Positions 4,799 through 15,967 of a stretch of DNA of 16,202 bases are shown in pieces (positions within the stretch are counted from its first letter, which is position 1; every line of letters starts with the position of its first letter). The notes under the pieces were generated by a model. The model saw only the letters and a list, made by a program, of their open reading frames with translations, had not been told where the DNA came from and searched no databases. The DNA is from Clostridiales bacterium (GTDB lineage Bacteria; Bacillota; Clostridia; Christensenellales; Aristaeellaceae). The stretch is from positions 1-16,202 of the forward strand of contig JAAZEI010000176.1 of the NCBI GenBank assembly GCA_012512355.1, in the 5' to 3' direction. The position numbers were made by a program, and so were the translations under genes.

Positions 4799-5839
4799 CT
4801 ATGCAATTGCCCGAGCTACAGCTTCAAGCAGAGCCCGGACATCTTCCTCGCGCGTCGCCCAGCTTGTACAAAAACGGATGATGCTTGAATTCTCATCCGC
4901 TTTTTGAATTATCTGAAAGCCGAAGCTATCGCGAAGTTTGTTGATGACTTTATTGGGCAAGATAGGAAACTGCTGGTTGCTGGGAGAGTCTGCAAAGAAG
5001 CTGACACCAAGCTTTTCAAGCCCTTCTCGCAGTTGCATGGCCAAACTAACGGCGTGTTTTGATAAGTCAAAATAAAGGTCATCCTGCATCAGGGCCTCAA
5101 ACTGCAAGCCCATCAGCCATCCTTTGGCGAGCATGCCGCCTCTTTGTTTGATGCTGTAGCGAAAGTCTGTCTGCAGATCAGGATTTAAAATCACCACCGC
5201 TTCACCAAATAATGCCCCTTGCTTGGTCATGCCCATGGTAAATACATCGCAGTACTGCGCGATGTCCTGTAGATCCAGATCGCACCCTCGCGAGGCCAGC
5301 GCATAACCAAGGCGTGCGCCATCCAGAAAAAGCGGCAATTGAAGCTCACGGCAAACATTGCTGATGTTTTTTAATTCATCCAAACTGTAGATGCTGCCAA
5401 GCTCGGTGGTGTTGGAGATATATACCATGCCGGGCTGCACCATATGTTCGTGGGTTTCATCCTCCCAGTGCTGCCTTGAGAGCATCTGAATATCCGACGC
5501 TGTGATTTTGCCGCTTTTATTAGGCAAGCTGAGCACTTTGTGACCCGTCGCTTCAATCGCTCCGGTCTCATGTGCATTGATATGCCCGGTATCAGCCGCG
5601 ATGACTCCCTGGTAAGGGCGCAGAATCGAAGCGATCACAGTGAGGTTGGCCAAGGTGCCGCCTGGGATAAAATGCAATTTTGCCTGAGGCTGTCCGCACA
5701 TTTTTTGCAATATCTCTTCAGATTGTCTGCAATAAGTATCTTCGCCATATCCCCTGTGCTGCTGCCTGTTGATGTCACAAAGCACTTGGAGGATGCTTTC
5801 ATGCGCGCCTTCTGAATAATCGTTTCTAAATTCAATCAT
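4799..5839 (-). CDS. Low-specificity threonine aldolase family PLP enzyme
   Basis: This is a PLP-dependent fold-type I enzyme of the beta-eliminating lyase group, predicted to cleave threonine or allo-threonine to glycine and acetaldehyde. From the chosen start it has 346 residues, normal for the family. Visible are the N-terminal FRNDYSEGAH, the glycine-rich PGGTLAN near 59-65, HETGAIEATGHK (90-101), the cofactor-contacting FLDGARLG (D173) and the Schiff-base lysine K206 in TMGMTKQGALFGE. I prefer the ATG at 5839 over the upstream ATG at 5881: family members begin with M-x-F-x-NDYSEGAH, and AGG lies 8-9 bases upstream. This start overlaps the stop of the AAA ATPase gene by 8 bp, indicating translational coupling. 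Confidence 0.9.
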   Translation of the reverse strand: MIEFRNDYSEGAHESILQVLCDINRQQHRGYGEDTYCRQSEEILQKMCGQPQAKLHFIPGGTLANLTVIASILRPYQGVIAADTGHINAHETGAIEATGHKVLSLPNKSGKITASDIQMLSRQHWEDETHEHMVQPGMVYISNTTELGSIYSLDELKNISNVCRELQLPLFLDGARLGYALASRGCDLDLQDIAQYCDVFTMGMTKQGALFGEAVVILNPDLQTDFRYSIKQRGGMLAKGWLMGLQFEALMQDDLYFDLSKHAVSLAMQLREGLEKLGVSFFADSPSNQQFPILPNKVINKLRDSFGFQIIQKADENSSIIRFCTSWATREEDVRALLEAVARAIA

Positions 5840-6956
5840 CTGCTTGACCTGTTTCTTCAACGCTTCCGGATTCGTTTGCATCTTCCAAATCTTCCGCTTT
5901 GATTTCCATCAATTGTTCACGATTTATTTGCTGCAGACGCGCCAGACGATTGGCTTGCCTTGAAACAGACTTTTCAAACAGGTTGCGGACACCGCGCGCA
6001 TTGCCAAATCCGATTTTGTTTTGAGATTCATGTTTGATGATTTCTCGTAAGCGTTCTTTTGCACCTTCTGCCAGCACATAAGCGGATTTTTCGCAGCGCA
6101 GATAGAAGATGTCCATCAGCTCATCCACAGTGTAGTCAGGGAAATGGATAAAGCGATTAAAGCGGCTTTCAAGCCCGGGGTTTGAGTGAACAAATTCATC
6201 CATCAGCTCAATATAACCCGCAACAATGACAATGAGGTCATCACGATGATCCTCCATGGCTTTCAACAGAGTCTCGACCGCCTCTTGGCCATAATCCTGC
6301 GGTCCGCGCGTGGTCAAAGCATAGGCTTCGTCAATAAACAATACGCCGCCCAGCGCTTTTTGTATAATTTCCTGTGTCTTCAGGGCTGTCTGTCCAACAT
6401 ATCCTGCCACCATGCCGCTTCTGTCAACCTCCACCAAATGACCTTTTGACAGGATATCCAGGCTGTGGTAAATGCGGCTCATAATGCGGGCTACAGTGGT
6501 TTTACCCGTACCTGGGTTTCCGGAAAACACCATGTGAAGACTCAAATCCTTAACCTTGAGCTCATGCTCTTTGCGAAGCTGATTCACCCGGACCAGGTTG
6601 ATGAGACTCTCCACTTCATCTTTCACGCCTGTTAAGCCAATCAGGCTGTCAAGTTCAGCCCGCAGGGCTGCGATATCCTCCTTGGGCAGAGCAGCCTCAT
6701 GCTTTTCTGCTTTACCGGAATCTTTGCTCTGGGGCTTAGACTTGTCAGAGATCTCGTCCTGCGATTTTCCAGTAAAATCAATCTTGGGAACTTCAGGAAA
6801 ACCGGGCGGCGGTCCAGACTCAGTTTGCGGGAATCCTCCGTTGCCAAACAGGTCATCCCCCACTGTCTCCAGTTTGCTCTTTGTCAATTGGCTGATAATC
6901 TGGTTTTGCAGCCTGAGGATTTCCTCTTTGCGGCTGTTGAAATCATTGTTGTTCAT
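5832..6956 (-). CDS. SpoVK/CbxX-type AAA ATPase
   Basis: This is a cytoplasmic AAA+ ATPase of the CbxX/CfqX (SpoVK) family, ring-forming remodelling enzymes. An N-terminal polar, low-complexity region (1-95) precedes the AAA module. Walker A is GNPGTGKT (146-153), Walker B GVLFIDEA (204-211), the arginine-finger region GLESRFNRF (261-269) and the sensor-2 helix GNARGVRNLFE (318-328). It has 374 residues from the ATG at 6956, chosen because AGAGGT lies seven bases upstream; the longer frame back to 7013 has no such site and crosses the promoter. SpoVK homologues are often sporulation-linked, but nothing here shows that. The client protein is unknown. It overlaps and is co-transcribed with the threonine aldolase. 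Confidence 0.88.
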   Translation of the reverse strand: MNNNDFNSRKEEILRLQNQIISQLTKSKLETVGDDLFGNGGFPQTESGPPPGFPEVPKIDFTGKSQDEISDKSKPQSKDSGKAEKHEAALPKEDIAALRAELDSLIGLTGVKDEVESLINLVRVNQLRKEHELKVKDLSLHMVFSGNPGTGKTTVARIMSRIYHSLDILSKGHLVEVDRSGMVAGYVGQTALKTQEIIQKALGGVLFIDEAYALTTRGPQDYGQEAVETLLKAMEDHRDDLIVIVAGYIELMDEFVHSNPGLESRFNRFIHFPDYTVDELMDIFYLRCEKSAYVLAEGAKERLREIIKHESQNKIGFGNARGVRNLFEKSVSRQANRLARLQQINREQLMEIKAEDLEDANESGSVEETGQADD

Positions 6957-6990
6957 ACGTTTTACCTCTATCAATGTGCTTAATGCCCTT

Positions 6991-7019
6991 ATTATACAGG
7001 GCAACGGCATCATTGTCGA
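6991..7019 (-). promoter_or_regulatory. Sigma-A type promoter of the AAA ATPase-aldolase operon
   Basis: On the minus strand TCGACA (7014-7019, five of six) and a perfect TATAAT (6991-6996) are spaced by 17 bp. The predicted start near 6984 leaves about 28 bases before the ATG at 6956. A weaker alternative pair (TTGGCT and TAAAAT) lies further upstream, toward the HD-gene terminator. Confidence 0.6.
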
Positions 7020-7200: not shown

Positions 7201-7704
7201 CTATGCAAACTTTTGCTTATCCAGCCCAAACATAGTCCTGCACAATTGCTTCCCTTTGTTTGTGCGAAAAATTGTTTCAAGCGTATGCCGTATTGTCTTT
7301 TCATTGTTATCATGCTCAAAAAAATTCACCAGGAAATCTGCTTCAACCAGTATCTGATAATCAGCTCCCTGAATATCATCATAGGTATGATGGTGCGCAA
7401 TGATATAACAGATACGCTCCACCATATCCTCAGGCCAGCCGATAAGAAGCTTGCGAGCTTCATCGGGCCCCAGCTCCTCCTGCAAACGCGCGGTGGAGTG
7501 TCCATAAAGCGCTGCCGCAGGTTTGACCCCCACATCGTGAACAATCCCCACCGCTTCGAGGATTTCCAATGTGCGCTCGTCAAGCTTTTCATTTTCCCCG
7601 ATCATCAGTGCAAAATCACGCACCTTGAGCAAGTGCTGGATTCGTTTTGGCATCCCTTCAAAATAATCAATCGTACGATAAAGTAATTCGTCCGTCCGTT
7701 TCAT
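7201..7704 (-). CDS. HD-domain metal-dependent phosphohydrolase
   Basis: This 167-residue cytoplasmic protein is a single HD domain. The metal ligands can be placed: H24 in RIQHLLKV, the H56-D57 doublet in IVHDVG, further histidines at H69 (YGHS) and 104-106 (AHHH), and D123 in VEADFLVN. This is the layout of small standalone HD hydrolases that act on nucleotides or other phosphoesters. The substrate cannot be told from sequence. A perfect AAGGAGGT lies eight bases before the ATG, the strongest ribosome binding site in the window. The gene is 42 bp behind the HAD phosphatase and last before the terminator, so both hydrolases are probably made together. Confidence 0.85.
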   Translation of the reverse strand: MKRTDELLYRTIDYFEGMPKRIQHLLKVRDFALMIGENEKLDERTLEILEAVGIVHDVGVKPAAALYGHSTARLQEELGPDEARKLLIGWPEDMVERICYIIAHHHTYDDIQGADYQILVEADFLVNFFEHDNNEKTIRHTLETIFRTNKGKQLCRTMFGLDKQKFA

Positions 7705-7746: not shown

Positions 7747-8556
7747 TTATGCCCGCAGAGCCTCAAGAATGGTCTGGATCCCATCAACCGCAAAATCAGG
7801 CTGGGTCTCACTTTGTTTCATAATATCAGGAGTTGTTTCGCCGCTGAACACCAAAATACTCATCACTCCGGCGCGTTTCCCGCAGACGATATCAGTATAT
7901 ATTCGGTCACCGATCAGGACAGTATCTTCGGGTTTTATGCCCTTCTTCTGCATGGCCAAAAGCGCGATTTCCGGTTCCGGTTTGCCTAAAAATCGCGGCA
8001 GCCTGCCTGTGGCGTGTTCCAATGCCTGGGCGAAAGAGCCGCAATCGGGAACATAACCAAACTCCGTGGGACAAACCCAGTCTGGGTTAGTGGCCAGGTA
8101 CTCTACTCCGCGATTAAGAAGGATGGAGGCATCCACCAACTTCTGATATACCAGTTCGGTATCATATGCCATTAACAGCAAATCAATCCCCTCTTCGAGT
8201 TTATCTGTGATGGGGAAGCCTTCCTTTTTAAGTTGGTTTTTAAATGACTCTGTTCCCAGGGCATAGATAAGCTTACCTTTATAATTGGCTCGCAAAAATG
8301 CGCAGGCAGCATCAGTGGATGTGAAAAAGTCATCAGAGGAACAGGAAATGCCCATACCGGTAAGCTTCTGTACATAGGCATCAGTTCCTTTAGAAGAATT
8401 ATTGGTTAAAAAAATTGGCTCAGCTCCCGACCTTCGGACTTCGTGTAAAAAATCGATTGTATCGGGAAATAAACGGCTGCCCAGGTATAGGGTGCCGTCC
8501 ATATCCAGCAGATACAATTTTTTATCCTTCAGTGCTTCCTGTAATTTATTGTTCAT
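7747..8556 (-). CDS. HAD-IIA family sugar/nucleotide phosphatase (NagD/AraL-like)
   Basis: This is a cytoplasmic HAD hydrolase of subclass IIA, the group that includes NagD, AraL, 4-nitrophenylphosphatase and pyridoxal phosphatase. Motif I is D18-M-D20-G-T, with nucleophile D18 and acid/base D20. Motif II is FLTNNSS (T51), motif III K192 in GKPEPEIA and motif IV G216-D217-RIYTD222-I. The cap domain lies about 85-185. The length of 269 residues is typical. The frame also allows a GTG at 8559, but AGGAG is seven bases from the ATG at 8556 and only four from the GTG. It is 27 bp behind the MFS gene. Family members dephosphorylate a wide range of small metabolites, so no substrate is assigned. 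Confidence 0.92.
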   Translation of the reverse strand: MNNKLQEALKDKKLYLLDMDGTLYLGSRLFPDTIDFLHEVRRSGAEPIFLTNNSSKGTDAYVQKLTGMGISCSSDDFFTSTDAACAFLRANYKGKLIYALGTESFKNQLKKEGFPITDKLEEGIDLLLMAYDTELVYQKLVDASILLNRGVEYLATNPDWVCPTEFGYVPDCGSFAQALEHATGRLPRFLGKPEPEIALLAMQKKGIKPEDTVLIGDRIYTDIVCGKRAGVMSILVFSGETTPDIMKQSETQPDFAVDGIQTILEALRA

Positions 8557-8583
8557 CACGGTTCTCCTTTAAATCAAAATAAA

Positions 8584-9858
8584 TTATGCATCATCAAAAT
8601 CTATGCTGTCCATTTCATGGCGCAGGTGGCTGAGGAAATAAAGTGCCAGCAGGGATAGCAAGAAAGACAGCAGCATGGGGAGGTTCAGCGCCCAAGTGGT
8701 TAAAAGCCCGTTGAGCGCACCAAAAGGGGCCGTAACCAACAAACAAAAGGACAGCGAGAAGCCAAACATGCGCGCCCGCTCTTCGTGGTCCAGCAGCAGC
8801 ATTTGAAGGCTGGAAAACAATGGAATGGTTATGCTCAAGGCAAGCGCTTCCGCTATCACACCCGGGAAAACTGCCCAGCTCGCAGAAGCCGGCAGCACAA
8901 AAAGCATCAGATGCAAGCCCGATAACAGCACTAACCCCACCAACATGGGCTTGTAAAAACGACGGGCATTCAAACGGTGGGACAAAACAAAAAAGAAACC
9001 CAGCATTGACAGCGACCGCAAACCGGATAACAGCGGCAGCGCCTCTTGCGATACCCCCAGCTTCTGAGTCAGCAGCAGAGGCCAAAAATTATCTGTCGCA
9101 CTGCGAATGACCATCACACAGGAGATAATGCCCAGCACCAGCATCAACGGCTTGCGGCGCAGCATCACACGAAGCACAGTAAAGCCGCCTCGGGCCGCAT
9201 GAAATACTGAGCGACCTTTTAGCTGTATTTTTCTCTTTTCCCCTGCCGCGGTCTCCCTTGTAAATATCTGCAGCAAGATAATTTTGGTCACCATAAAGAC
9301 AAAGGCAAACAGGAAGAGACCGCGCATGGTATTAACCAATGAAAATCGTCCCACTAGCAGGCTTGTCAGCGGCGAGAAGAAGCCTGACAGCAAGCCGGCT
9401 ATGGTGGAAAGCGAATAAATGCTCACAAGCATCCTGGGCGGAGCGTCTTCAACGAGCAAAAGACCCCAGGAGTTCTCTGTGATGCGCCAGGTGCCGTTAA
9501 GTACAGCGGCCGCGATAAACCAGGCAAAGCCCTGAGCGTTCATCCAGATGAGAAAAGGAACAGCCCAGCAAAAAAAATCCACAACCGCTGTTGTCCACCG
9601 GCGTCCAAACTTATCTGTGATGGCACCACTGAAAAACGAAGAAAACATCTGACTCAAGAGGTTGACCGTGGCAACCACACCAATCTGCAGAGGATCAAGC
9701 CCCAGCGCTCCCATGTACATCGACATCAGCGGCATATAGAGATTCACCGGAATGCCCCACATGGGTTCGGTATAGATACAAACGCGGGCATTGCCCTCCA
9801 GGGTCATCAGCGCATGCATGAGTTTGTTTCGGCCCAGCAAGGCTTTAAATTTCGACAT
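8584..9858 (-). CDS. MFS transporter
   Basis: This is a 424-residue inner-membrane protein with about 12 predicted hydrophobic helices. The MFS signature between helices 2 and 3 is GAITDKFGRR (78-87), close to the consensus GxxxDRxGRR. A central polar loop (ETAAGEKRKIQLKGR) divides the two halves, and the C-terminus is acidic (DSIDFDDA). The start at 9858 is chosen because GGAGGT lies nine bases upstream; an earlier ATG at 9888 has no such site. The substrate is unknown; the overall pattern resembles efflux-type MFS proteins but this is weak. It is first in a unit with a phosphatase and an HD hydrolase, and divergent from the ATL gene. Confidence 0.9.
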   Translation of the reverse strand: MSKFKALLGRNKLMHALMTLEGNARVCIYTEPMWGIPVNLYMPLMSMYMGALGLDPLQIGVVATVNLLSQMFSSFFSGAITDKFGRRWTTAVVDFFCWAVPFLIWMNAQGFAWFIAAAVLNGTWRITENSWGLLLVEDAPPRMLVSIYSLSTIAGLLSGFFSPLTSLLVGRFSLVNTMRGLFLFAFVFMVTKIILLQIFTRETAAGEKRKIQLKGRSVFHAARGGFTVLRVMLRRKPLMLVLGIISCVMVIRSATDNFWPLLLTQKLGVSQEALPLLSGLRSLSMLGFFFVLSHRLNARRFYKPMLVGLVLLSGLHLMLFVLPASASWAVFPGVIAEALALSITIPLFSSLQMLLLDHEERARMFGFSLSFCLLVTAPFGALNGLLTTWALNLPMLLSFLLSLLALYFLSHLRHEMDSIDFDDA

Positions 9859-9890
9859 GTTATTGTGACCTCCAGCCATATTCCCCAAGT

Positions 9891-10385: not shown

Positions 10386-11459
10386 TCAGGTCTGTATCTT
10401 CAGCTGATCCTTGAGTGAGCCGTCATCATCGAAGACCAGGAAATCACTCAATTCCAGCCTTACTTCGTCACCGGGATTGAACTTATTATAATCACGGCCT
10501 TCACTGATGACACGCAAATCTACTTCCCCGATTTGTACACGATAATCGCTGGCTTCCCCCAGGTAATACTTCTTGGTAATGATAGCGGGAATTCCCACTT
10601 CACCCTTTGTCATGGTGATATTCTCAGGCCGGATAGCCACCTCTACCGCGCCGCGCCGCTCACCGGAATAAGGCAATTTGACATTTGTCCCTTTCAGGGA
10701 GATGATGCCGTCTTTTGACTCGCCTTTTAAGAAGTCAACCTTCCCCAGGAAGTCTGCGACAAATTGGTTAACCGGCTGGTTATAAATCTCTTCGGGTGAA
10801 CCTTGCTGCTGAACAATCCCCCGGTTGATGAGAAAGACGCGGTCACTCATCGCCATGGCCTCTGTTTGGTCATGGGTAACATACACCACAGTGATGCCCA
10901 GCCTGTTTTGTATCTCCTTAATTTCAAAGCGCATTCCCTCGCGTAGTTTGGCATCCAGGTTTGACAGCGGCTCATCCAGCAGCAGCAGCTGCGGCTCGGC
11001 GACAAGCGCGCGAGCCAATGCAACACGCTGCTGCTGTCCTCCTGACAGCTGATTTGGGTACCGCTGGGCATACTGGGATAAGTGCACAATATCCAATACC
11101 CTGGCCACTTTGTCTTCAACTGTTTTTTTATCTGCTTTGGCGATGGTCAGCGGATAGGCAACATTGTGGTACACATCCATGTGCGGCCAAACGGCATAGC
11201 TTTGAAATACCATGCCCACACCCCGCTTTTCCGGAGGTACAAAAGTATTGCCGCCCGACACCAGCATATCACCGATGTAGATTTCGCCTGTTGTTGGTTT
11301 TTCAAAGCCTGCGATCATCCGCAGCATCGTTGTCTTGCCGCAGCCCGAAGGGCCCAGCAGGGTGACGAACTCTCCGTCCTGGAATACCTCATTAAAATCG
11401 CTCAAAATGAGGCTGGTGCCAAATGATTTTGTGACATTCTTTATCGTAACGCTTGACAT
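10386..11459 (-). CDS. ABC importer ATPase (FbpC/PotA-like)
   Basis: This is the cytoplasmic energising subunit of the importer. It has 357 residues: Walker A GPSGCGKT (36-43), Q-loop at Q86 in GMVFQSYAV, signature LSGGQQQR (138-145), Walker B LLLLDEP (158-164), D-loop SNLDA and H-loop H196 in VTHDQTE. The C-terminal part (about 240-357) matches the TOBE region of the Fe3+/spermidine/maltose (CUT1-like) ATPase group. GGAGGG precedes the ATG by four bases, and only 13 bp separate it from the permease stop, so it is co-transcribed as the third gene of the operon. The predicted substrate class is ferric iron, 2-aminoethylphosphonate or a similar small anion; sequence alone does not decide. Confidence 0.93.
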   Translation of the reverse strand: MSSVTIKNVTKSFGTSLILSDFNEVFQDGEFVTLLGPSGCGKTTMLRMIAGFEKPTTGEIYIGDMLVSGGNTFVPPEKRGVGMVFQSYAVWPHMDVYHNVAYPLTIAKADKKTVEDKVARVLDIVHLSQYAQRYPNQLSGGQQQRVALARALVAEPQLLLLDEPLSNLDAKLREGMRFEIKEIQNRLGITVVYVTHDQTEAMAMSDRVFLINRGIVQQQGSPEEIYNQPVNQFVADFLGKVDFLKGESKDGIISLKGTNVKLPYSGERRGAVEVAIRPENITMTKGEVGIPAIITKKYYLGEASDYRVQIGEVDLRVISEGRDYNKFNPGDEVRLELSDFLVFDDDGSLKDQLKIQT

Positions 11460-11472
11460 GCTACCCTCCGTA

Positions 11473-14400
11473 TCAGATGGAAAACTCGCCCTTGGTCAGG
11501 CGGTTGAGAATCAGGTTAATGAAAATAACGATGAGCAAAATACCAAAGGCCATGGCGCTCGCCTGGGGCTGACTGGTAAAAGTCCAGTACTCATACAACT
11601 GAAAACCGATTGTTTTGGTGCTGTTTGAATAGAGCAGAGTGGTCATGGCCAGTTCATAAAAACACGGGATAAATATCAGGAACCATCCTGCTGCAATAGA
11701 GGGGAAAATAAGAGGACCCGTCACCTTGCGCATGGTTGTTATCCAGGAAGCGCCCGAGACCTGGGAAGACTCCTCCAACGAAACATGAATTTGGCTGATG
11801 GCAGAGGTAACTGTTCGCATGCCCATCATCATGTATTTAACAAGGTAAGCCACGATGAGAATATAGGCTGTATTGTATATATTTACTCCAAACCGACCCT
11901 GCATGGACATAATGAGCCCCAGCGCGATTACCACAGAAGGCGATCCGCTGCCCAGGGTAATCAGAAAGTCCGGCAGTTTCCGGCCGCGGATGGTCGTTCG
12001 CTGCATGAGATAGCTCATGGTAATGGCCACCAATATGCCTACGGTAGCTGAGACCGAAGCATAGATGAAGCTGTTCTTCAAGCTGGTCATGGTCTCCGAA
12101 CGAGAAAAAATGTTTGTCCACTGATGAAGGGTAAAATTGCCGGCCGCCATGAGTGACTTGCCCACGTCGATTTTAAGAGAAGTCGTGAGGATGGTGGCAA
12201 AAGGCAGCAAGACGACCAAGAAAGCAAACAGTCCAACAATGATCGTCAGCGGTATGCGCCAGGTGCGCAGATCCACAATGTTGGGGCGGGTAGATTTCCC
12301 TGATACTGTAATATATTGCTTTTTTGCCAGGACAAAGTCCGAGATATACAGAATCAGCAAAGCCAGTGTCATCAAAAAGACTGACAGCCCTATGGCGTCA
12401 TTGAGCCCCTGGGTGCCTCTGCCATAGTATTCGATGATGCGAGTGGTCACCGTGTGAACGCGCCCAGGAGCCCCCACAATGGAAGGGATGCCATAAGCGC
12501 TGGCCGCGCTGACAAACACCAGCAAAGCGCCTGCGATCAGGGAGGGTGTCATGATTGGCAGCGTTACTTTTAATAGAGTTAAAAAGGGCGAAGCGCCGGA
12601 AATACGTGAAGCTTCCTCAAGGGAGGGATCCATCTTCTCCATCGCCCTGGAAATGGTAATAAAGGCATAAGGATAAAAGAAGGTGGTGAGCACCCACACC
12701 ATCCCGCCCATGCTGTAGATATTTAGCGGGCCCACTGCAGACTTAAGCCCCAAGAGGGTGCGCAAAATCACGTTGATGCTGCCTACATTGGGGTTGAGCA
12801 GACGCAGCCAGGCCATGGCCCCGACATAGGGTGGCACCATGTAAGTGAGAACGAACAAATGACGGAAAAATTTCTTCCCAATCAAATTGGTTCTGCCCAC
12901 CAGCCAGGCCAAAGGAAAAGCGATGACCGTGCCCATTACCATGGCGGAAAGTCCGGAAACCATGGTATTAACCAAAGCACTTCGGTTCATGTTGTAGCTA
13001 AACAGGCGCTCAAATGTTTGCAAAGAGAAGGTGCCTTGGGGTGTAAATGCTTTGTAGAGCATGTATCCCAAGGGCAATATCTGGAACACCAGCATAAAAT
13101 CGACAATCAGCAGAATTAACAGCCATTTCATGTCTATGCGCCAATCGTTGGAGGAACGCATCAAAAACGCCAGCAGCAGAGAATCAATAAACAGCAGCGC
13201 ACCCAGAAGCGCCAATACCTTTCCCTTGCTATTGATGATTTGGGTCAGCCTGTCGCCGCCGCCTGCGGCAATGGTCTGCGCTGCGCGAATACGCGGCGCG
13301 TTGGCCCGAATTGCTAGCCTTAAACCCGCGCCAACCTCATCACCATAAAGTTTTCCAAAACCGCTACCTGACAAAAGATGCAAGTAAAGCAAGGCTTCCT
13401 CACGCTCTAAATCAGTCTCGCTCAAAAAGTTTTCAGCAAACTCGGGTAGGGGGGCCAGGGGGTCAATGATGCCATGCAAAAGATCTTCGCGCAGAACACT
13501 TCGCTGTTGTTTTGGTAAACTCTCGACGCTGCGCTGGACTGCGATGGGGATGCGCGGCGCATCAAAAGCAAAGAGTGCTGCAATGAGACTTGATTTTGTC
13601 TGCCAGGCATCTTCACTGGATAGCTCGGCCAGGTAATCTTCAATAAGGCGGCCTGTATCCGCATCCCTTGCCATAATCAATTCATTGGCCAGATTGTTTT
13701 GGATATCACTCGCCGATTCGCCCTGAACGAAAGCCTGAAGTGAAGACACCATCAAGTCATCTTGCGCTGAAGACACATGGGCAGTCATATCAAGCGCCTG
13801 GGAAAACAAGGGGGTGAGATAATCATTCCAAGCTTTATCTTGCAGCATATCAGCCTGCTCCAAAAGAGCTTGAGATTCTTCCTCTGCCAGGGCATCCGCC
13901 TGCAGCAAAATGAGGGAATTATGGTCCATACCCGAAAGGTCCGGGTGCACGCTTTGCAAGCTTTCATATAAAGCCCGTGACAGTGCCAGCAATCTGGCAC
14001 CCGATGTATTTTCAGGTGTAAGAGATAAAAGAACTTCCGCAAAGGCGTCAGCTGCACTTAAATTGACAATATTCTCTTTCACCTCTTCGTCTTTTGTGAC
14101 GTCAAAAAGAAGAGCTTTCAAATCTGAAAGATTATACTCAGGCGCAACACGATGAAGCTCATTGAATATTTCTAGCGCTACACCTGCAACCCCGGCCGCA
14201 CCATTGCGATAGCGAGCCAGGCGCTTTTCACCGATAGCCTCCGCAAACAAAAGACCGGACTGCTCTTTCAGCTCTCTTTCAACAATACTTTCACCGCTCT
14301 TTTTTGCTTCCTGCAGGCTGGCGCGTAAATTTTCTGCCTCACTTTGCGGCAGACTATCTGCCAGTTTGAGGATAAGCCATTCATAAGCCGGAACACCGCT

Positions 14401-14859
14401 ATCGTTTGTCCCCAGGATCACAGCGTCAAGCGCCAGGGTGGCGCGGCTGACACCTTCTTTGAGATCATCATCTGAAGTCTCACGAAGCAAGGTTGCCATC
14501 ATATCAGCACGCCGGGCGATGTCGGTACGTTTGTAATCAGAAAGCGTCTCACCCGCGTAGCGCACCCTCCGCCACAAGTTTGACAGCACCCTGTCCATGC
14601 TGCGGCTGAGTGTCTGCAGGCTCTCCTCATCAAACTTTGCCAACAAAGGCTTATCAGCCTTCAGCCCTTCCTCCGCTAGTCGTCCCGCTTTATTGATGAG
14701 CATAAAACCCTTGGCATCATCAAAGTTGGACTGACTAAGTGCCTGGGTGCCGCGCACCCCCAAAAAGATCAACAAAAGACCCAACGCAACAGCGAAAGTC
14801 AGGGCAATTTTAACACCCCGGCTGCGGCGGTGGGTCTGGGACATCAGAGGGCTGGTCAT
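11473..14859 (-). CDS. Double ABC permease with a ~510-residue extracellular domain
   Basis: This 1128-residue membrane protein forms the channel of the importer. Two FbpB-type transport domains are fused: the first about 577-845 with EAA loop EEASRISGASPF (748-759), the second about 865-1128 with EESSQVSGASWI (1029-1040). Usual fused permeases of this type have 500-600 residues. Here a cytoplasmic basic tail (HRRSRGVK), a membrane helix (about 17-37), a long helical, acidic, Cys-free region (38-546) and a second helix (547-567) precede them. By the positive-inside rule the region lies outside the cell. I cannot assign it to a known domain. Segments near 122, 249 and 374 look alike, suggesting repeats. 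The start is set by AGGAG seven bases upstream. It lies 82 bp behind the binding-protein gene and 13 bp ahead of the ATPase gene. Confidence 0.9.
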   Translation of the reverse strand: MTSPLMSQTHRRSRGVKIALTFAVALGLLLIFLGVRGTQALSQSNFDDAKGFMLINKAGRLAEEGLKADKPLLAKFDEESLQTLSRSMDRVLSNLWRRVRYAGETLSDYKRTDIARRADMMATLLRETSDDDLKEGVSRATLALDAVILGTNDSGVPAYEWLILKLADSLPQSEAENLRASLQEAKKSGESIVERELKEQSGLLFAEAIGEKRLARYRNGAAGVAGVALEIFNELHRVAPEYNLSDLKALLFDVTKDEEVKENIVNLSAADAFAEVLLSLTPENTSGARLLALSRALYESLQSVHPDLSGMDHNSLILLQADALAEEESQALLEQADMLQDKAWNDYLTPLFSQALDMTAHVSSAQDDLMVSSLQAFVQGESASDIQNNLANELIMARDADTGRLIEDYLAELSSEDAWQTKSSLIAALFAFDAPRIPIAVQRSVESLPKQQRSVLREDLLHGIIDPLAPLPEFAENFLSETDLEREEALLYLHLLSGSGFGKLYGDEVGAGLRLAIRANAPRIRAAQTIAAGGGDRLTQIINSKGKVLALLGALLFIDSLLLAFLMRSSNDWRIDMKWLLILLIVDFMLVFQILPLGYMLYKAFTPQGTFSLQTFERLFSYNMNRSALVNTMVSGLSAMVMGTVIAFPLAWLVGRTNLIGKKFFRHLFVLTYMVPPYVGAMAWLRLLNPNVGSINVILRTLLGLKSAVGPLNIYSMGGMVWVLTTFFYPYAFITISRAMEKMDPSLEEASRISGASPFLTLLKVTLPIMTPSLIAGALLVFVSAASAYGIPSIVGAPGRVHTVTTRIIEYYGRGTQGLNDAIGLSVFLMTLALLILYISDFVLAKKQYITVSGKSTRPNIVDLRTWRIPLTIIVGLFAFLVVLLPFATILTTSLKIDVGKSLMAAGNFTLHQWTNIFSRSETMTSLKNSFIYASVSATVGILVAITMSYLMQRTTIRGRKLPDFLITLGSGSPSVVIALGLIMSMQGRFGVNIYNTAYILIVAYLVKYMMMGMRTVTSAISQIHVSLEESSQVSGASWITTMRKVTGPLIFPSIAAGWFLIFIPCFYELAMTTLLYSNSTKTIGFQLYEYWTFTSQPQASAMAFGILLIVIFINLILNRLTKGEFSI

Positions 14860-14877
14860 CTTGGCTCTCCTTGAATT

Positions 14878-14941: not shown

Positions 14942-15967
14942 TTACTTGCTAATGGTGACGTTTTGCTGGAAAGCAGTCTGGATTTCATCGCGCATGGTGT
15001 AGCAGCGCACCCAGTCAACACCGATATCGCTTTCAATCAATCCGTTTGTATCAATAGAATCAAAAGGCGCTTCTTCCATGCCGCTAAATACAGAGTGCAT
15101 ATATCCCTCAATGACAAACTGTTGGCCTTCTTGCGACAGCAGCCAATCTGTAATCGCTTCGCAAGCCTGGATGTTCATGTTGGCGCTGCGATCAGCCGCA
15201 ACGGTCATGACAGTTGAGGGGATAAGAATGACGCCGTCTTCGGGGTAAATGCAAGCCAGCTTGCTGCCATCTTCTGCGCGCTTTTTAAGAACTGATTCCT
15301 CAAGAATCATGATGACTTTGCACTCACCTGTTTCAAGCTTTGTCAGCGCGGTAGAGCCCGACTCAATCATTACATTGTTTTTGCCCAGTGCTTCAAAGAA
15401 CTCATAGCCATACAGATCGCTCAAGGCGGCGATACCGGCCATGGTGGTACCGGAGGTCAGTGGGTTGCCCATAGAAATCTGGCCCTTGAGGCTTTCGTCA
15501 TAGGCAAACTCTTCAAAGGTTTTTGGCAGTTCTTCAGGGGTATAAAGTTCGGGATTGTAGGCAAGCACCATGTTGCAAACGCGAACCGGGTACCAGTAGC
15601 CTTCCTCGTCATAGGGAAAACGCAGCATGTCCTGCGCATTTTCGATCACATAGGAGTGGAGCCAGTCGCCTTCTTTGAGTTCCAGCGAGTAAGCAGGCTC
15701 AGCCACCAGCATCATGTCGCAGCCAAGTTTGCCGGTCTGGGTCTCACCAGCCAGCTTCTGCTGCAGAGCGCCTGTACCGCCGTAGAAGAACTCGACGTCC
15801 AGGTTTGGGAATTCTTTGGCCATGGCTTCATCCATCATGTCAATGACAAATTGGTACATGGATGTATAGATAACCACCTTGCCAGTGAGTTCCTCGTTGA
15901 CAGCGAGTGCTGATGGGATAGCCAGCAGCATGGTCAGGCATAGTAAAATCGCGAGCAGTCTCTTCAT
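14942..15967 (-). CDS. Extracellular solute-binding protein of Fe3+/AEP-type ABC importer
   Basis: This is the substrate-capturing subunit: 341 residues, first gene of the operon. Residues 1-22 are a signal peptide (MKR, Leu core, IPSALA cleavage site). The only Cys in it, C10, sits in the hydrophobic core preceded by Leu and does not fit a lipobox, so the mature protein should be released rather than lipidated. The mature part has the type II binding fold of the FbpA/PhnS/ThiB group: VVIYTSMYQF strand, FFYGGTGALQQKLAGE (60-75), PVRVCNMVLAYNPE hinge (127-140) and GNPLTSGTTMAGIAAL (167-182). Iron-binding tandem tyrosines of classical FbpA were not clearly found, so the substrate remains open. 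AGGAGG (15978-15983) lies ten bases upstream of the ATG. Confidence 0.92.
   Translation of the reverse strand: MKRLLAILLCLTMLLAIPSALAVNEELTGKVVIYTSMYQFVIDMMDEAMAKEFPNLDVEFFYGGTGALQQKLAGETQTGKLGCDMMLVAEPAYSLELKEGDWLHSYVIENAQDMLRFPYDEEGYWYPVRVCNMVLAYNPELYTPEELPKTFEEFAYDESLKGQISMGNPLTSGTTMAGIAALSDLYGYEFFEALGKNNVMIESGSTALTKLETGECKVIMILEESVLKKRAEDGSKLACIYPEDGVILIPSTVMTVAADRSANMNIQACEAITDWLLSQEGQQFVIEGYMHSVFSGMEEAPFDSIDTNGLIESDIGVDWVRCYTMRDEIQTAFQQNVTISK

What the first reader, a model, noticed from the sequence alone, without database searches (positions are those of the whole stretch)
13222..14748. ABC importer permease carrying a ~510-residue extracellular helical domain
Seen: one uninterrupted frame of 1128 codons with its own Shine-Dalgarno. 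It contains an N-terminal helix, about 510 residues of soluble-looking, acidic, cysteine-free sequence, a second helix and then two complete permease domains with both EAA loops. Known: fused FbpB-type double permeases are normally 500-600 residues without such a region. Inferred: charge distribution puts the region outside the cell, where it could dock, retain or gate the binding protein, or sense the cell envelope. I cannot match it to a named domain.
Basis: partly seen in the sequence, partly recalled or inferred. Interest (0 to 1): 0.8.

Follow-up and report, generated by a model that had tools for sequence, protein, structure and literature searches.

The report
Importer permease with extra outer domain
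A nutrient-importing membrane protein of a little-known bacterium carries a large, fast-changing helical domain outside the cell that matched no family in the databases searched, and related bacteria have the same importer with no such domain, a small one, or this large one.

Summary
ORF 11473-14859(-) is an intact 1128-aa fused double permease of the FbpB/PhnU2 kind. Residues 38-546 form an acidic, Cys-free, all-helical extracellular domain between two extra N-terminal membrane helices, with no Pfam, NCBIfam or PDB-sequence match. It is a real, selected domain: 11 database relatives (10 of full length; 38-61% identity in the domain), AlphaFold pLDDT 80 or more in 52 of 56 ten-residue blocks, and median dN/dS 0.28-0.37 against 0.05-0.08 in the permease.

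New here: three architectures on a permease that stays 66-86% identical to the window's: no domain, ~213 aa, or ~510 aa. The long form is a clade (support 0.997) nested among short forms and arose by a ~300-aa insertion in the middle. In the genomes searched the domain sits only on this permease.

The domain shows no specific co-divergence with the binding protein. A P2-like docking/gating role is my best, unproven guess; whether the fold is new was not tested.

Novelty: new variant of a known kind.

The parts
11473..14859 (-). whole ORF, 1128 aa: TM1 - extracellular domain - TM2 - permease domain 1 - permease domain 2
14867..14872 (-). Shine-Dalgarno AAGGAG, 7 bases before the ATG
   Evidence: read from the sequence
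14761..14817 (-). extra N-terminal membrane helix TM1 (residues 15-33)
   Evidence: hydropathy; helix 6-44 in the model
13222..14748 (-). extracellular all-helical domain, residues 38-546
   Evidence: no family match
14560..14751 (-). part shared with the short form: N-terminal ~65 residues of the domain (residues 37-100)
   Evidence: hhalign of short and long profiles, 96.1% probability
13669..14559 (-). approximate long-form-specific insertion (about residues 101-397; edges uncertain by some tens of residues, since the profile match of the C-terminal part begins weakly at residue 341)
   Evidence: what the aligned regions leave over; median domain length 510 vs 213
13219..13668 (-). part shared with the short form: C-terminal ~150 residues of the domain (about residues 398-547)
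   Evidence: hhalign 99.3% probability over residues 341-547; profile A4 hits 13219-13806
13162..13218 (-). extra membrane helix TM2 (residues 548-566)
   Evidence: hydropathy
12343..12918 (-). permease domain 1 (BPD_transp_1)
11494..12027 (-). permease domain 2 (BPD_transp_1)
14942..15967 (-). binding protein (SBP_bac_6/8; FbpA/AfuA/PhnS2 group), plain signal peptide without lipobox
10386..11459 (-). ATPase with TOBE_2 (closest NCBIfam model PhnT2, below its cut-off)
7747..8559 (-). HAD-IIA phosphatase, same strand; a relative sits directly upstream of the binding protein in three other long-form loci
7201..7704 (-). HD-domain protein, same strand; relatives near the ATPase in five short-form loci

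Best explanation
An ordinary fused type I importer permease (FbpB/PhnU2 kind) that has gained an N-terminal module TM - extracellular helical domain - TM. In this bacterium's clade the domain was then enlarged from ~213 to ~510 residues by an insertion in its middle (shown by comparison). The module is anchored by its two helices and stands out in the cell envelope, where it changes much faster than the permease (shown). Most likely role (inferred, about 40%): an accessory extracellular platform beside the translocation mouth that helps the acidic, freely secreted binding protein approach or release, i.e. it works like the MalF P2 region without belonging to it. The substrate is possibly an organophosphate or phosphonate (inferred, about 50%).
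For: ORF and topology. Domain confidently folded and all-helical in both forms: short; long. Relatives and restriction to this permease in what was searched. Three architectures and nesting. Insertion. Purifying selection. Binding protein found next to the permease in 94 of 99 loci and ATPase in 90 of 99. No Omp85 match in 60 genomes, own included, so the domain faces the wall/outside. In the short form the most conserved quarter of domain sites is richer in basic than acidic residues (0.177 vs 0.059) while the rest is acidic (0.082 vs 0.164), and the mature binding protein is strongly acidic (-32 here; median -31 in the short class). Domain/binding-protein partial correlation 0.20, Mantel p 0.001. 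Substrate hint: the closest NCBIfam models are PhnS2/PhnU2/PhnT2, PDB relatives include AfuA and P5PA, phosphohydrolase-type neighbours.
Against: The docking step is untested: no complex was modelled. Co-divergence is not specific: domain/permease 0.22 (p 0.002) and domain/ATPase 0.47 (p 0.001) equal or exceed domain/binding protein 0.20, while binding protein/permease is 0.72. In the long form conserved sites are not basic-enriched (0.107 vs 0.099). In-family binding proteins are equally acidic where the domain is absent (-33 to -38; the two outgroups -15 and -16). Domain-less relatives exist in the same family, so the domain is not needed for this kind of importer in general. Conservation in the short domain is patchy along the sequence rather than confined to the membrane-near ends. 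The best PDB sequence match of the binding protein is an 'iron-binding protein', so the substrate guess may be wrong.
Confidence: 0.45

Rival explanations
1. Envelope-facing spacer or shield: the domain does not touch the binding protein but packs into or against cell-wall polymers or neighbouring proteins, positions the importer, or covers it from outside agents; its fast change reflects exposure.
For: Fast evolution against a highly conserved permease (median dN/dS 0.365 vs 0.082 in 173 short pairs, 0.275 vs 0.054 in 4 long pairs; median distance 1.39 for the domain against 0.25 for the permease in 70 short loci); tolerance of a ~300-residue insertion; no specific co-divergence with the binding protein; no Omp85 in the lineage sample.
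Against: In the own genome (79% complete) no other of 51 BPD_transp_1 matches lies in a frame above 658 aa, whereas a general shield or spacer would be expected on other importers too. No Pfam match, wall-binding or other.
Confidence: 0.33
2. Retention tether: it replaces the lipid anchor that the secreted binding protein lacks in a monoderm cell.
For: By script, binding proteins beside domain-bearing permeases lack a lipobox in 8 of 8 readable long loci and 74 of 77 readable short loci; no Omp85 match; the two outgroups without the domain (L051, L169) have lipobox-like N-termini.
Against: Five of five in-family domain-less loci with a readable binding protein also lack a lipobox. L168 and L111 have both lipobox and domain. 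14 of 14 readable SBP_bac_8 proteins of this genome lack a lipobox although no other permease frame exceeds 658 aa. Lgt is found in 79 of 80 genomes.
Confidence: 0.1
3. Ligand-sensing or regulatory ectodomain, like a receptor's sensor domain set between two helices, that modulates the permease.
For: TM - helical ectodomain - TM layout.
Against: No output domain: the N-terminal cytoplasmic tail of this protein is about 14 residues. No sensor-domain match in Pfam.
Confidence: 0.1

Closest known systems
FbpB of Thermus thermophilus (PDB 9j4r), fused type I permease
   Different: Chain of 490-493 residues without the TM - ectodomain - TM module (its alignment starts at residue 624 of the query)
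NCBIfam PhnU2 (TIGR03262), putative 2-aminoethylphosphonate permease
   Same: Best NCBIfam match, aligned over residues 578-1123
   Different: 140.5 bits against a cut-off of 593.25; model of 546 positions without the domain
Fusobacterium vincentii permease (L051)
   Same: 59.6% identical over the whole permease part; same binding protein - permease - ATPase order
   Different: 560 aa, no domain; its binding protein begins with a lipobox-like sequence
MalF P2 region of the E. coli maltose importer
   Same: Large extracytoplasmic region of an importer permease; contacts the binding protein, and in simulations the membrane (passages of PMC3150292). In one search two MalF chains align from residues 547 and 555, i.e. 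with the extra helix TM2 included
   Different: P2 is residues 91-271 of MalF and contains beta-sheets; here the domain is all-helical and precedes the permease core; the MalF rows shown cover no part of the domain
GlnPQ-type importers with binding domains fused to the permease
   Same: Extracellular domain covalently joined to the transporter (start of the abstract of PMC11331510 in the listing)
   Different: Here the binding protein is still a separate gene and the domain has no binding-protein family match

Membership tests
Fused FbpB-type type I importer permease (BPD_transp_1) | Two BPD_transp_1 domains in one chain, each with an EAA loop | tested here: met
Fused FbpB-type type I importer permease (BPD_transp_1) | Gene beside an SBP_bac_6/8 binding protein and an ABC ATPase | tested here: met
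Fused FbpB-type type I importer permease (BPD_transp_1) | Permease core fold of FbpB | tested here: met
NCBIfam PhnU2 (2-aminoethylphosphonate permease) | Score over the curated equivalog cut-off | tested here: not met
   140.5 of 593.25 bits; so not filed as PhnU2
MalF P2-type extracytoplasmic region | Beta-containing fold of MalF residues 91-271 | tested here: not met
   domain is helical by DSSP, with isolated bridge residues only; P2 description from passages; no direct fold comparison with P2
MalF P2-type extracytoplasmic region | Contacts the binding protein during transport | not testable with these tools
   no co-folding or binding assay available
GlnPQ/OpuA-type fused binding domain | Fused domain is a binding protein by sequence family | tested here: not met
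   no SBP family match for the domain; all-helical models
Any domain of known fold in the PDB | Structural match of the domain itself | tested here: inconclusive
   permease matches fill the lists shown; the domain was not folded alone

The most novel reading that the evidence does not exclude
A previously undescribed extracellular helical module, confined to one permease of one bacterial lineage, that takes part in binding-protein handover or gating in an ABC importer and has been enlarged by an internal insertion while the importer itself hardly changed: an evolutionary series (none, small, large) of an accessory domain on one transporter.
Probability: 0.35. Interest if true: 0.7.

Novelty: new variant of a known kind. 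Interest (0 to 1): 0.5.

Why it matters
Importer permeases are usually thought of as compact cores served by a separate binding protein. Here a conserved core carries an uncatalogued outer domain that exists in three states among close relatives, a natural deletion series for asking what an extracytoplasmic domain adds to a type I importer. It also bears on how monoderm bacteria run importers whose binding proteins appear not to be lipid-anchored.

Tried and rejected
Internal duplication as the source of the long form: hhalign of its halves and thirds against each other gave at most 2.2% probability, and the whole against itself at most 1.8% off the diagonal; however the SHORT profile against itself gave an off-diagonal match of 36.3% (E 0.00037), a weak hint of a repeat within the short domain that I did not pursue. 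Frame fusion or assembly error: spoken against by relatives of the same length. Domain borrowed from a stand-alone protein: the search at stand-alone length gave 3 proteins, all on contigs of 1.0-1.2 kb, so likely fragments (there, as, only 7999 candidates were scored); in 200 family genomes every profile hit lies in a permease-length frame or in what I read as a contig-edge fragment (G187 frame of 405 aa, G018 of 383, G153 in two pieces); in a phylum draw of 398 genomes only the own genome matched. Loss of the lipoprotein pathway: Lgt in 79 of 80 and LspA in 68 of 80 genomes. G063, which looked like a domain-less 85%-identical relative, is cut by its contig end and was dropped. L134, first labelled 'mid', is a short form whose start was chosen too far upstream. 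Weak sequence hits of the domain, taken as chance: single members of A4 to 14 Pfam families at E 0.011-0.1, three of them TPR-type; LpoA in the PDB at E 0.52. Structure: no match of the domain itself in the rows shown for the PDB, which were filled by the permease, so this says little; the viral library gave no match at E <= 0.001. Literature: among the papers listed (none; 12 of 1,466 shown) I recognised none that describes this domain; one search found no paper for its terms on the T. thermophilus FbpB structure. I saw listings, plus passages only of PMC3150292, PMC4546632 and PMC8427247.
Full report
WHAT IS THERE. ORF 11473-14859(-) is one open frame of 1128 codons with an ATG start and AAGGAG seven bases upstream. 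It lies 82 bases after a binding-protein gene (14942-15967) and 13 bases before an ATPase gene (10386-11459), all on the minus strand. The window is contig C72 of a 2.0 Mb draft genome, 79% complete. A genome of the same genus (G029) has a contig of the same length and match position as a record titled 'Christensenella sp. UBA1385' (L049 and L072), so the bacterium is probably a relative of Christensenella-labelled Clostridia (inference). Pfam finds two BPD_transp_1 stretches and nothing in residues 38-546 (one hit below cut-off lies at 939-967). NCBIfam finds transporter models on the permease part only among the 25 matches of the whole protein and none for the domain alone; best is PhnU2 at 140.5 of the 593.25 bits it requires. 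Hydropathy places membrane helices at 15-33 and 548-566 around the region, whose net charge is -31 and which has no Cys.

TOPOLOGY. The EAA loops of type I permeases face the ATPase in the cytoplasm (established knowledge). In the short-form model the helices between the second extra helix and the first EAA loop put the short linker after that helix (MRSSNDWRIDMKW in this protein) in the cytoplasm and hence the domain outside (my reading of the helix list). Charge agrees: mean net charge of the N-terminal tail is +3.2 (9 long) and +2.5 (82 short), of the linker +1.4 and +0.5, of the domain -19.4 and -6.5. Omp85 had no match in 60 genomes, own included, while it was found in 7 of 14 control genomes, so 'outside' probably means the wall side of a monoderm cell.

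A REAL FOLDED DOMAIN UNDER SELECTION. Eleven database proteins match the domain (E 6e-93 or better; only 7999 candidates were scored); 10 are 1092-1129 aa and one, of 951 aa, covers 72% of it. AlphaFold2 gave ten-residue block means of 63-92 over residues 11-570 of this protein, 52 of 56 blocks at 80 or more (36 sequences), and 87-95 over residues 21-270 of a short relative (57 sequences). Both domains consist of helices and loops, with isolated bridge residues in the long one only. The permease parts were poorly modelled in both (overall mean pLDDT 69.7 and 65.3). In 177 pairs of domain-bearing loci with 89-98.5% quick permease identity (90 loci screened, L134 left out; the window is in none of the 4 long pairs), Nei-Gojobori dN/dS medians were 0.365 (N-terminal part with the domain) against 0.082 (permease) in 173 short pairs and 0.275 against 0.054 in 4 long pairs; pairs are not independent and many dS values approach saturation, so these are rough.

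THREE ARCHITECTURES. I analysed 99 loci with this permease (18 duplicates, two contig-cut loci L121 and L165, and short refetches L052-L060 and L141-L164 left out). Apart from two outgroups (Fusobacterium L051, 59.6%; G821 L169, 43.9%) they are 66-86% identical to the window in the permease part. Eight have no domain (six of the window's family plus the two outgroups), 82 a short one (median 213 residues) and 9 a long one (median 510) (L134 relabelled short). In a FastTree of the permease part the 9 long loci form a clade (0.997) inside the short ones (enclosing nodes 0.891, 0.885, 0.91, 0.933, then 0.118 and 0.225). Two domain-less loci, L170 and L171, branch outside (0.999-1.0), but whether the other four (L172-L175) are ancestral or secondary losses is unresolved (0.225). 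Profile comparison aligns short 1-65 with long residues 37-100 (96.1%) and short 27-213 with long 341-547 (99.3%), leaving an insertion of about 300 residues in the middle. No repeat was found within the long domain; the short profile shows a weak off-diagonal self-match (36.3%).

DISTRIBUTION. At E <= 1e-120 the permease was found in 78 of 200 family genomes, 8 of 297 genomes of an order draw and 2 of 398 genomes of a phylum draw, each count including the own genome; the order draw added one genome of another family (G316, short form), the phylum draw one domain-less relative (G821). The short-domain profile hits 69 of 200 family genomes, every time in a permease frame or what I read as a contig-edge fragment, and 1 of 398 in the phylum draw, that one being the own genome; it was not run on the order draw. 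Titles of the 80 named loci are mostly Clostridia or Clostridiales MAGs, some Christensenella or Christensenellaceae, and a few carry other labels (Oscillospiraceae, Ruminococcaceae, Synergistaceae, Erysipelotrichaceae, Chloroflexi); their true families were not checked (80 of 309 confirmed relatives kept). In the own genome it is the only BPD_transp_1 frame above 658 aa among 51 matches.

Retention: binding proteins were found next to 94 of 99 permeases. By script, no lipobox in 8 of 8 readable long (one N-terminus missing), 74 of 77 readable short (one missing) and 6 of 7 domain-less loci. By eye I overrule one of the last, L051, which starts with a lipobox-like sequence, so 5 of 5 in-family domain-less loci with a binding protein lack a lipobox. 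Of the three short loci flagged, L168 and L111 look genuine and L048 ambiguous. In the own genome 14 of 17 SBP_bac_8 hits, the window's included, had readable N-termini (L188-L190 did not) and none had a lipobox by script, although Lgt and LspA are present. So missing lipidation is general here and does not track the domain. Docking: in 70 short loci, partial correlations of distance matrices were 0.20 (domain/binding protein, Mantel p 0.001), 0.22 (domain/permease, p 0.002), 0.47 (domain/ATPase, p 0.001), 0.72 (binding protein/permease), 0.28 (permease/ATPase) and -0.21 (binding protein/ATPase). The binding protein follows the permease core; the domain's link to it is not specific, and domain distances are near saturation. 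For docking: short-form conserved sites are basic-rich while variable ones are acidic, and the binding proteins are very acidic. Against: the long form does not show this, and in-family domain-less loci have equally acidic binding proteins.

SUBSTRATE. All three components are closest to the NCBIfam 2-aminoethylphosphonate set, far below cut-off for binding protein (60.1 of 392.75) and permease and nearer for the ATPase (353.7 of 457.7). PDB relatives of the binding protein are proteins called iron-binding (best), then AfuA and P5PA. AfuA was annotated as iron-binding but carries hexose/heptose phosphates (passages of PMC4546632), and P5PA binds pyridoxal phosphate (passages of PMC8427247). 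A HAD-IIA phosphatase gene is near the operon in 4 of 9 long loci and an HD-domain gene in the window and 5 of 68 short loci examined (17 of 99 loci were lost in that script, and flanks differ in length). An organophosphate or phosphonate substrate is a reasonable inference, not a result.

VERDICT. It is a new variant of a known kind: an FbpB-type permease with an uncatalogued, lineage-specific ectodomain. What the domain does is open; a P2-like accessory role is my leading guess at about 40%, an envelope-facing spacer or shield second at about 33%. Whether the fold is new is untested, because the domain could not be folded and searched alone.

Noticed in passing
own genome, loci L182-L198; loci L061-L181: In this apparently monoderm lineage the readable importer binding proteins almost all carry plain signal peptides without a lipobox although Lgt and LspA are present; how they are kept near the cell is unexplained.
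   Followed up: partly
window 5832-7013 (-): AAA ATPase closest to stage V sporulation protein K, EccA and CbbX models in NCBIfam, below their cut-offs.
   Followed up: no
window 8584-9888 (-) and 7747-8559 (-): An MFS transporter (434 aa) and a HAD-IIA phosphatase follow the importer on the same strand; a relative of the former lies near one other long-form locus (L062), of the latter near three.
   Followed up: partly
L061-L065, L107 (long form) versus L066-L140 (short form): Judging only by isolate names, some long-form genomes may be anaerobic-digester MAGs (my recollection of the AS isolate series) while many short-form ones are named after ruminants; two AS isolates are short-form, and habitats were not checked.
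   Followed up: no
L131: A short-form permease with about 51 extra residues inside the permease part (885 aa); insertion or assembly error not examined.
   Followed up: no
loci such as L067, L071, L085: Long open frames on the opposite strand at the binding-protein and ATPase positions in many relatives (clusters 3 and 4); taken as chance frames, not examined.
   Followed up: no
short-form profile (alignment A4 region): Weak off-diagonal self-match of the short domain profile (36.3%, E 0.00037), perhaps a remnant of an internal helical repeat.
   Followed up: no
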